Shown: in pieces, positions 11,190 through 48,622 of the stretch
How positions within the stretch are numbered: position 1 is the stretch's first letter
Layout of the letters: the number at the start of each line of letters is the position of its first letter
Assembly (NCBI RefSeq): GCF_901538355.1
Contig: NZ_LR593887.1
Span: 5,060,920-5,124,919 of the forward strand
Source: Tuwongella immobilis
GTDB lineage: Bacteria > Planctomycetota > Planctomycetia > Gemmatales > Gemmataceae
Length of the DNA: 64,000 nt
Reading direction: 5' to 3'
Program-made: the position numbers and the translations under genes
The notes under the pieces: model-generated
Told to the model about the DNA's origin: nothing
Seen by the model: the letters and a program-made list of their open reading frames with translations, nothing else
Database searches by the model: none

Positions 11190-11297
11190 TCGGTGTCGGG
11201 AGTTCCATGCGAACGAGCAGACGATCGCGCATCGACGCAATCGGAGAATGCCAAGCTGCCCGATCGCGCCTGGTTCCGAGGCACCGAGCGATTGGAA

Positions 11298-11470
11298 ACG
11301 ATAGGCAGGTCTTCTGGCTAAACGGCTTGCCAGCCTCCCGAACCTTCCCGAGATTGCTCTCAGTGGTATGCAGGGGAGACTCGATCCGCACACAGCAGCG
11401 GCCCTGCGTCGGAATCTCACCGACTTCCCTTTTCATCGGTATCCGCAATCGGCGGACACGAACCTATCGC
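11298..11470 (-). promoter_or_regulatory. Cobalamin (B12) riboswitch aptamer
   Basis: Read on the minus strand, the element has all the main landmarks of the class. A closing P1 stem of seven pairs (11463-11469 with 11298-11304) encloses AAAAGGGAA near the 5' side, the GCtgCTGTG block, CCACTG, GGGAAGG, and the 3' B12 box TAGCCAGAAGACCTGCC (11319-11303). The length of about 173 nt is normal. It precedes the DUF6580 and BtuF-like genes on the same strand. Known members switch expression off when adenosyl- or other cobalamins bind, so the operon should be induced when B12 is scarce. Confidence 0.95.
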
Positions 11471-11602
11471 AAGATAACGTATCTCTCCCCCGCCAGGTGT
11501 CCAGTCGGAATCCGCACAATCACGGGTCAACTGAGACGGTTGCGCTGCGCCACCGGACCGCGACGTGAGCGAATCGGCAGGCGACGATTTCGCTGGGCAG
11601 AA

Positions 11603-46370: not shown

Positions 46371-47480
46371 TTAGGAAATTTCCAACGGATGCTGCCGATT
46401 CTTGAGCGGCAAATCGACTGGCTTGCCGACACGATGCGATTCATACACCGCCAGAATCATCTCCAACGCGGCCCGACCATCGGCCAGACTGCCTCGCGGT
46501 GCCCGATCCTGCTCGATGGCGTCCATCAGATCGTTGACAATGATTCGATTTCCGAACGGAAGCGACGATTCCCCCTGAATCACTTCCGGCTTGTCAACCC
46601 CCTGCGAACTGATGGGCTGCCAGGGTGCCTTCTCCCCGCTCCAACTGGGGTCCAAACAATAGCGCACCGGCGACAGACCGCCCACCTCGAAAAAGTGCAT
46701 CATTCCCTTGGTGCCGTAAATCATCATCCCGAAACGCTTTCCGCGATTGTCCGTGGCAATCTGCGTGCCGAAATGCCCAATGATTCCACGCGCAAATCCA
46801 TATTGAGCGATGATGCGATTGCCCAGCACCGGCCCCATCTGTTCGCCGCCCATACGAATATCCGCCTTGGTGGCGATTCGATCATCCTGCCAAATTTGCG
46901 CATGACACCAGCGGGGATCGCCGACCAGATATCGCATCAAATCAAACAGATGCGTGCCGAGGACCATCAAGTCTTGGCCGCCGCCGCGATGATCTTCCTT
47001 GCCGCGTGCGCGAATTTCGACAATCTCGCCGATTCCGCCATCGGCCAAGAATCGCTTAGCATGATCGACCGCCGGATTGTACCGCGTCTGGTGGGCAATC
47101 GCGCATTTCACATGGGCGACATCACACGCCTTGACCATTGCATCGGCTTCAACCAGCGACCGCGCAACCGGCTTCTCCAAAAAGATACTCGCACCCGCGT
47201 CCGCACAGGCTTTCACCATCGGCGCATGGCAATCCAACCAACGATCGGCCACGCTCACAATCTGCGGCTTCTCCGTCGCCAGCATCTCCCGATAATCCGC
47301 ATAGCCTTTCGTGAGATTCAGCCGCTTCAGCGCGGCGGCTCGGCCCGCCTCGTTTTCATCCGCCACCGCGATGAGTTTAGCCCGCGGCTGATTCAGCCAG
47401 ACCGTATCCAACCCGTGCCCATAGTTCCCCTTTCCGGTCCGACCGATGACCGCCACGGTGAATTGCTTGCTCGCGGACAT
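46371..47480 (-). CDS. Gfo/Idh/MocA-family oxidoreductase
   Basis: The 369-residue product has an N-terminal Rossmann domain ('FTVAVIGRTGKGNYGHGLDTVW', unusual in having an extended loop), 'GASIFLEKPVARSLVEADAMVKAC' (the EKP signature whose Lys is catalytic) and a C-terminal substrate domain with 'GGGQDLMVLGTHLFDLMRYLVGDP'. These enzymes oxidise sugars or inositols with NAD(P); the substrate is unknown. The ATG at 47480 has AGGAGA six bases upstream. It lies downstream of an 11-bp repeat array that separates it from the MoxR gene. Confidence 0.9.
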   Translation of the reverse strand: MSASKQFTVAVIGRTGKGNYGHGLDTVWLNQPRAKLIAVADENEAGRAAALKRLNLTKGYADYREMLATEKPQIVSVADRWLDCHAPMVKACADAGASIFLEKPVARSLVEADAMVKACDVAHVKCAIAHQTRYNPAVDHAKRFLADGGIGEIVEIRARGKEDHRGGGQDLMVLGTHLFDLMRYLVGDPRWCHAQIWQDDRIATKADIRMGGEQMGPVLGNRIIAQYGFARGIIGHFGTQIATDNRGKRFGMMIYGTKGMMHFFEVGGLSPVRYCLDPSWSGEKAPWQPISSQGVDKPEVIQGESSLPFGNRIIVNDLMDAIEQDRAPRGSLADGRAALEMILAVYESHRVGKPVDLPLKNRQHPLEIS

Positions 47481-47518
47481 GGGAATCTCCTGTGAGTTGG
47501 AACACGGTCTACCGACTG

Positions 47519-47639
47519 CCGACCAACTACCGACTACCCGCCGACTTTCATCCGACCGCACACCGACTTATGGCCGACTAATCACCGACTAATGACCGAT
47601 CGCAAGCCGACTTGGATCCGACTTCGTGCCGATTATGGC
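47519..47639. repeat. Eleven-unit array of 11-bp repeats, consensus CCGACTNNNNN
   Basis: CCGAC or CCGAT recurs exactly every 11 bp at 47519, 47530, 47541, 47552, 47563, 47574, 47585, 47596, 47607, 47618 and 47629; the other five positions vary. A further CCGACT lies 7 bp before the first unit. The last unit overlaps the MoxR stop codon. The array sits about 40 bp upstream of the Gfo/Idh gene start. An 11-bp period is close to one helical turn and is not a multiple of three, so it is not coding. Confidence 0.9.
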
Positions 47640-48622
47640 ACTGGAACGGCGGCGAGTAGGCGGACAATCAGGTCATCGACGGTGCAGCCTTGGGCGTCGG
47701 CCTCGTAACTCGGGATCAGCCGGTGCCGCAGCACATCGGGGGCAATCGCTTTCAGGTCGCCCGGCGTGACATAACCGCGCCCCTGCAAGATGGCCATGGC
47801 TTTGGCCGCCCGCAGCAGCGACAGCGTCGCCCGTGGACTCGCCCCAAGTCGCAGCATGCCCACCAGTTGCGGCGCGTGACGCTCTGGATGTCGGGTCGCC
47901 TGCACCAGATCGAGCAGATATTCTTTCAATGGCTCTGCGACGTATACCGCATCCACCAATGCGCGGAATTGCAGCACATCCTCCAGCGTCCAAATGGGTG
48001 CAACGCTCGTGGCCGGGGATAACGTGCCCATGCGGTCCAGAATCTGCGATTCTTCCGCGCGAGTGGGATACTCGACGCGGATTTTCAGCAGAAAGCGATC
48101 GAGTTGCGCTTCTGGCAGCGGATATGTCCCCTCTTGCTCGATCGGATTCTGCGTCGCCAGCACCAAAAACGGCGACGGCAGCGGAAATGTCGTTTCGCTG
48201 ATGGTCACTTGCCGTTCTTCCATCGCTTCCAGCAACGCCGATTGCACCTTGGCCGGTGCCCGATTGATTTCGTCCGCAAATAGAATCGAGGCGAAAATCG
48301 GCCCGGTTTTGATGCTCATTTCGCCGGTGCGCGGATTGTAAATCTGCGTGCCGATCAGGTCGGCGGGAAGCAGATCCGGGGTGAATTGCACCCGTTGGAA
48401 TTTCAGATGCATCGCCTGCGCCAGGCAGCGCACCGCCAGCGTTTTCGCCAACCCGGGCAACCCCTCCAGTAGCAGATGCCCCCCGGTAAATAGGCCAATC
48501 AGCAGCCGGTCGATCAACGCCGTCTGGCCAATGATGACGGTGGCCAGGGTGTGCCGCAACGCATCAATGCGAGTCTTCGCATGAGACAGCGATTCGGCGG
48601 ACGGTTGGAGCGGCTGACTCAT
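47633..48622 (-). CDS. MoxR-family AAA+ ATPase
   Basis: The 329-residue product has Walker A in 'LLLEGLPGLAKTLAV' (about 51-65), Walker B 'ASILFADEINRAPAKVQSALLEAMEE', sensor 1 'LVLATQNPIEQEGTYPLPEAQLDRF' and the winged C-terminal lid. MoxR ATPases act as chaperones that insert metal cofactors or mature vWA-domain partners. Here there is no vWA or DUF58 gene. Instead it overlaps by 4 bp a zincin metallopeptidase gene immediately upstream, which may be its partner. Its stop lies inside the 11-bp repeat array. Confidence 0.93.
   Translation of the reverse strand: MSQPLQPSAESLSHAKTRIDALRHTLATVIIGQTALIDRLLIGLFTGGHLLLEGLPGLAKTLAVRCLAQAMHLKFQRVQFTPDLLPADLIGTQIYNPRTGEMSIKTGPIFASILFADEINRAPAKVQSALLEAMEERQVTISETTFPLPSPFLVLATQNPIEQEGTYPLPEAQLDRFLLKIRVEYPTRAEESQILDRMGTLSPATSVAPIWTLEDVLQFRALVDAVYVAEPLKEYLLDLVQATRHPERHAPQLVGMLRLGASPRATLSLLRAAKAMAILQGRGYVTPGDLKAIAPDVLRHRLIPSYEADAQGCTVDDLIVRLLAAVPVP

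What the first reader, a model, noticed from the sequence alone, without database searches (positions are those of the whole stretch)
47512..47639. Eleven 11-bp units with an invariant CCGAC/T core between moxR-type and Gfo/Idh genes
Eleven consecutive units begin with CCGAC or CCGAT at exact 11-bp intervals, while the other five bases vary freely. Constant spacing with drifting filler suggests selection on the spaced core rather than recent slippage. The period is close to a DNA helical turn, so cores lie on one face; in the minus-strand transcript they read as AGUCGG every 11 nt. It could bind an oligomeric DNA- or RNA-binding protein, act as a nucleoid site, or control expression between two minus-strand genes. 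I do not know of a named element of this form.
Basis: partly seen in the sequence, partly recalled or inferred. Interest (0 to 1): 0.72.

Follow-up and report, generated by a model that had tools for sequence, protein, structure and literature searches.

The report
Helix-phased eleven-unit DNA repeat array
Between two ordinary genes of a planctomycete lies a run of eleven near-identical five-letter DNA marks spaced exactly one helix turn apart, which looks like a landing strip for a protein that polymerises along DNA; similar strips turn up in mobile elements, phages and some distant bacteria, but the protein that would read this one is unknown.

Summary
Eleven CCGAY cores sit at exactly 11 bp (47519-47633, +), filling most of the 152-bp gap between the stop of a moxR-type gene and the ATG of a Gfo/Idh gene. 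Filler drifts while cores hold: only 2 of 41 departures from consensus fall in the core (0 of 200,000 permutations do as well). The same genome has one further, more degenerate eleven-unit array, before selO; a 1.68-Mb sample shows no other drifted array with a non-codon period. Twenty-nine Gfo/Idh orthologs lack the array, so it is not conserved at this locus. The same form recurs elsewhere: in the 3' end of a primase gene next to xerC in mobile elements of several phyla, in phages, and dozens of times per genome in some Bacteroidales and Rhodobacterales. In the primase genes the core is fixed at synonymous sites in all three frames and changes in concert, showing nucleotide-level constraint there. 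Best reading: an operator-like array for a DNA-binding protein that assembles head-to-tail, one protomer per turn, as Xis/Apl, BldC, CarH or ParR do. The reader protein and its effect here are unknown.

The parts
47519..47639 (+). array of eleven 11-bp units, core CCGAY at the first five bases of each unit (RTCGG on the minus strand)
47512..47516 (+). extra CCGAC core, out of register (7 bp before unit 1)
   Evidence: sequence
47481..47632 (.). 152-bp intergenic gap that holds the array
47633..48622 (-). moxR-type AAA ATPase gene; its stop codon (47633-47635) overlaps the last base of core 11
46371..47480 (-). Gfo/Idh/MocA oxidoreductase gene; ATG at 47478-47480
47486..47491 (-). AGGAGA, probable ribosome-binding site of the Gfo/Idh gene
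   Evidence: sequence, (inference)

Best explanation
The array is a DNA-level nucleoprotein site: an operator-like array on which a small DNA-binding protein, most likely of winged-helix type, assembles cooperatively head-to-tail. One protomer would read each CCGAY/RTCGG core, once per 11-bp helical turn, making a filament of about 120 bp between moxR and the Gfo/Idh gene. Shown: the array, its exact register, core-versus-filler conservation, a second array in the genome, and nucleotide-level constraint on the same form in mobile elements. Inferred: that a protein binds here, that it is a winged-helix protein, and that the local effect is on transcription or DNA architecture (repression, or insulation of the Gfo/Idh start codon 38 bp beyond the last in-register core).
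For: Core conservation far above uniform decay. In 1.68 Mb of the genome every other drifted-filler array has a codon period (multiple of 3); the only 11-bp ones are the window array and the selO array, with the same core. RTCGG/11-bp arrays recur at the 3' end of a Toprim-primase gene beside an integrase in Actinomycetes, Beta- and Gammaproteobacteria and Gemmataceae; there the cores fall in all three reading frames yet always read TCG, CGG, GTC/ATC. In the AT-rich Kangiellaceae copy TCG is 10% of Ser and CGG 6% of Arg codons, and all five cores carry A instead of G together. Of 8 plasmid homologs found by protein similarity alone, 7 have 11 as the top autocorrelation lag there, with an element-specific core. 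The segment encoded by the array is predicted disordered (pLDDT below 40) and follows a winged-helix-like domain. In Bacteroidales and Rhodobacterales genomes with dozens of arrays, orientation to genes is mixed, which favours DNA over RNA. Published precedents: phage 186 Apl, seven 6-bp operators at 10-11 bp (PMC7498355); BldC, four 5-bp tracts one turn apart (PMC5859096); CarH, tandem 11-bp repeats with a short core (PMC9304148). The genome encodes 13 HTH_17 domains over cut-off, one MerR_1 and four OmpR-type domains.
Against: No reader protein is identified, and none is encoded next to either array. There is no regulon: no clear excess of two- or three-unit sites. No promoter was found by consensus scan. 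The array is not kept at orthologous loci. The mobile-element arrays are related in form only, and the own genome lacks that primase.
Confidence: 0.5

Rival explanations
1. Relic site of a lost mobile element: an iteron, centromere or excisionase array left between the genes and no longer read.
For: In the same family the form sits in mobile elements beside integrases and replication-type genes. The second own array is partly decayed.
Against: No integrase, primase or other mobile gene nearby; the own genome lacks the primase. Cores in the window array are nearly perfect while filler has drifted, which argues against long disuse.
Confidence: 0.2
2. Minisatellite grown by unit duplication, without function; the conserved core is an accident of expansion or of biased mutation.
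For: Some filler is shared between units; the array is absent at orthologs; many perfect 11-bp tandem repeats exist in other genomes.
Against: Mean filler identity is 0.34 while the core is almost invariant; 0 of 200,000 permutations. A second array in the genome has the same core and period.
Confidence: 0.17
3. RNA-level element: eleven RUCGG motifs in the moxR-Gfo/Idh transcript bind an oligomeric RNA-binding protein or a small RNA.
For: Both own arrays lie between co-directional genes in the same sense; the primase-gene copies share that sense.
Against: In Bacteroidales and Rhodobacterales orientation to genes is mixed. RNA folding is only modestly better than shuffles (z -1.9). No Rfam match at the array.
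Confidence: 0.08
4. Response-regulator operator of the OmpR/PhoB kind (11-bp head-to-tail half-sites) controlling the Gfo/Idh gene.
For: An 11-bp half-site period is the known spacing of PhoB-type sites (established knowledge); four such domains are encoded.
Against: No regulon of short sites; eleven units is far more than such operators have; the core differs from known PhoB boxes (own knowledge).
Confidence: 0.05

Closest known systems
Excisionase/RDF operators (phage 186 Apl, lambda Xis; PMC7498355)
   Same: Short (6-bp) cores in direct repeat about one helix turn apart, up to seven in a row; also used as promoter operators; cooperative head-to-tail binding
   Different: Apl spacing is 10-11 bp and the arrays lie at att or a phage switch; here it is strictly 11 bp, eleven units, between chromosomal genes, with no integrase and no known reader
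BldC operators (PMC5859096)
   Same: Regularly spaced 5-bp contacts one helical turn apart; variable number of repeats; nucleoprotein filament
   Different: Consensus AATTNNNNC with 9-bp repeats at whiI; up to four repeats described in the passages read; a Streptomyces regulator
CarH operators (PMC9304148)
   Same: Tandem 11-bp direct repeats with a short conserved core and free filler, bound on one DNA face
   Different: Core TnnACA, 3-5 repeats, at carotenoid promoters
ParR/parC centromere of plasmid R1 (PMC9426499)
   Same: Multiple (ten) 11-bp direct repeats bound by one protein
   Different: Ribbon-helix-helix reader, repeats flank a par promoter; no parM/parR here
11-bp arrays in primase-integrase mobile elements
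   Same: Same RTCGG core and 11-bp register with drifting filler
   Different: Inside a coding 3' end next to an integrase; 3-6 units; not orthologous

Membership tests
RDF/excisionase operator array | short cores in direct repeat about one helix turn apart | tested here: met
   eleven cores at 11 bp
RDF/excisionase operator array | lies beside an att site / tyrosine integrase | tested here: not met
   flanking genes are MoxR, zincin-like, Gfo/Idh, methyltransferase
RDF/excisionase operator array | bound by a cognate winged-helix RDF | not testable with these tools
   needs a binding assay
BldC operator | AATTNNNNC repeat | tested here: not met
   core is CCGAY/RTCGG
CarH operator | tandem 11-bp direct repeats | tested here: met
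CarH operator | TnnACA core | tested here: not met
ParMRC centromere (parC) | adjacent parM and parR genes | tested here: not met
   no such genes flank the array
Array of the primase-integrase element | lies in or next to the element's primase gene | tested here: not met
   no credible homolog in the own genome (best E 0.57)
Neutral minisatellite | units diverge at similar rate in all columns | tested here: not met
   0 of 200,000 permutations
OmpR/PhoB-type operator | a regulon of short sites with the same half-site and spacing | tested here: not met
   no clear excess of short sites in 1.68 Mb

The most novel reading that the evidence does not exclude
CCGAY-core, 11-bp-phased arrays form an unrecognised, widespread class of chromosomal architecture sites: two in this planctomycete, dozens per genome in some Bacteroidales and Rhodobacterales, and others in mobile elements and phages, on which an undescribed family of filament-forming DNA-binding proteins assembles once per helical turn.
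Probability: 0.22. Interest if true: 0.8.

Novelty: new variant of a known kind. Interest (0 to 1): 0.55.

Why it matters
If a protein binds it, this would be an unusually long helix-phased direct-repeat site, eleven cores in exact register, and a ready substrate for studying filament-forming DNA-binding proteins on a chromosome. The comparison made here also gives a testable handle on a wider pattern: arrays with the same core and spacing in unrelated phyla, and a mobile-element family in which the period stays at 11 while the core changes in concert, as expected if array and reader co-evolve.

Tried and rejected
Orthology: 29 Gfo/Idh orthologs have neither moxR upstream nor an array. Regulon: no clear excess of CCGAY pairs at 11 bp (90, within the range of neighbouring non-codon distances; CCGAC pairs 22, borderline) and no weaker arrays. 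Homology of the two own arrays: filler similarity equals column-shuffled controls. RNA element: no Rfam hit, modest fold. Promoter/terminator scan empty. Mobile-element origin: primase absent from own genome. Core specificity in viral contigs: six-unit searches gave drifted arrays for CCGAY and also for CACGY, hardly any for ACCGY, so 11-bp arrays are not confined to this core. The 12-bp control was uninformative because 12 is a codon period. Literature: no paper found for the repeat sequences themselves.

Full report
CHECK OF THE OBSERVATION. The window holds eleven CCGAY cores at exactly 11-bp steps, 47519 to 47633, units to 47639. Three-unit matches with one mismatch allowed number 9 against 0.18 expected in shuffles. 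An extra CCGAC at 47512 is out of register. Columns 1-4 are invariant, column 5 is C9/T2, column 6 T8/C3, column 7 weakly biased, and columns 8-11 near random. Of 41 departures from consensus only 2 fall in the five core columns, which 0 of 200,000 permutations equal, even taking the best five-column window. Adjacent filler is partly shared (TAATCA/TAATGA), so duplication contributed.

PLACE. The array fills most of the 152-bp gap between the stop of a moxR-type gene (47633-48622, minus) and the ATG of a Gfo/Idh gene (46371-47480, minus); the last core overlaps the moxR stop. No promoter-like or terminator-like match was found there. The sense RNA folds slightly better than shuffles (z -1.9) and so does the other strand (z -2.1). 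No Rfam family matches at the array.

OWN GENOME. The genome is one contig of 6.69 Mb. Pattern searches find one further array, at 1397995-1398109, with eleven units in register, seven perfect and four with one change. It lies between a HEAT-repeat gene and selO, overlapping the HEAT stop codon, in the same sense as the window array. In 1.68 Mb sampled, a scan for any 4-base core at any period 7-30 finds drifted arrays only at periods divisible by three, apart from these two (the 22-bp rows are the same arrays). The selO locus was included on purpose; the rest of the sample is unselected. There are no weaker arrays and no clear excess of pairs at 11 bp. The two arrays are not detectably copies of each other.

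ORTHOLOGOUS LOCI. Of 29 Gfo/Idh orthologs (55-61% identity) in the family, none has moxR in the fetched flank and none has the array.

SAME FORM ELSEWHERE. In the family, four to six CCGAC units at 11 bp occur in G040, G089, G092 and others. Most lie in mobile elements: at the 3' end of a Toprim-primase gene followed by a tyrosine integrase, after an AAA/DUF927-like gene (weak match), in a DUF1376 gene, or before a DUF1580-like gene (below cut-off). The primase-integrase pair with the array also occurs in an actinomycete, Massilia and Kangiellaceae. In these genes the cores fall in all three frames and always read TCG, CGG and GTC/ATC. In the Kangiellaceae copy, where TCG and CGG are rare (10% of Ser, 6% of Arg), all five cores are ATCGG instead of GTCGG. 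This is nucleotide-level constraint with concerted change. As a test not selected on the array, eight plasmid homologs were fetched by protein similarity alone: three have a run of in-register GTCGG cores, and seven of eight have 11 as the strongest autocorrelation lag in that region, with other cores in the rest (GTCTG-, CAGGTC-, GCGGG-type). That lag test took the stretch most favourable to 11 in each gene, so it is somewhat biased towards 11. The structure model (mean pLDDT 56) gives a winged-helix-like fold before the array and disorder over it; the fold matches are weak (best E 0.005, ArsR/MarR-type).

DISPERSED ARRAYS IN OTHER PHYLA. Many hits are plain tandem repeats, but many have drifted filler. 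In twelve of those genomes, chosen because they had an array, four-unit matches (1 mismatch) number 119 (Bacteroidales RGIG9971), 139 (Paludibacteraceae RGIG5062), 124 (Salinihabitans), 105 (Roseovarius) and fewer in others, with none (one genome: one) in the reversed control. These are overlapping matches, so arrays are fewer, dozens per genome. Those read lie mostly between genes, with mixed orientation (simple ORF calls). In RGIG9971 most end in a hairpin and share flanks, so there it is a dispersed repeat family. Whether these are the same biological thing as the window array is not shown. Viral contigs also carry drifted 11-bp arrays with another core, CACGY, so the period is commoner than the core.

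MECHANISM. The anatomy, a 5-bp core once per helical turn with free filler, is that of operators for proteins that assemble head-to-tail on DNA: Apl and Xis (PMC7498355), RdfS (PMC11963761), BldC (PMC5859096), CarH (PMC9304148), and, with another fold, ParR (PMC9426499). The genome encodes 13 HTH_17 domains over cut-off, one MerR_1 and four OmpR-type domains, so candidate readers exist. That a protein binds, which one, and to what effect, is inference. The array works like these operators; it fails at least one defining feature of each named family.

VERDICT. Real, non-random, very probably maintained by selection on the core at some time; a longer and stricter variant of a known kind of site; reader and effect unknown.

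Noticed in passing
G000:C1:1397995-1398109 (L091:9996-10110): Second eleven-unit CCGAY/11-bp array in the same genome, more degenerate, between a HEAT-repeat gene and selO.
   Followed up: yes
L096, L097, L092-L094, L114, L117, L122, L143, L679-L686: Mobile module with HTH_3 regulator, Toprim primase and xerC-type integrase; the 3' end of the primase gene holds an 11-bp array with an element-specific core that changes in concert.
   Followed up: partly
G203 (L648-L659) and G209 (L660-L667): Dozens of dispersed 11-bp CCGAY arrays per genome in Bacteroidales; in G203 they mostly end in a GTCCGAC-NNNN-GTCGGAC hairpin and can be followed by further 11-bp units with core ACGGTG (L657).
   Followed up: partly
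L116, L127, L148, L150, L624-L628, L636-L640: Rhodobacterales genomes with many CCGACGYRATA-type arrays, often flanked by GTTAAC and GANTC sequences.
   Followed up: partly
L242, L267, L269; L293, L299, L248: Phage arrays with the same core at the 3' end of phrog_248 activator genes and just after a major tail protein gene.
   Followed up: partly
L474, L475, L478: Viral contigs with drifted 11-bp arrays of a different core, CACGC.
   Followed up: no
L262, L268, L285, L260, L137: Drifted arrays with a 7-bp period (CAAGCTT-like, TAGTGCA) in viral and Bacteroidaceae contigs.
   Followed up: no
L100:7413-7494: Array of direct and inverted 11-bp units inside a DUF1376 gene; the contig has the same length and array position as a viral-collection contig (L240).
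   Followed up: no
window 11287-11482 (minus): Cobalamin riboswitch, 103.6 bits.
   Followed up: no
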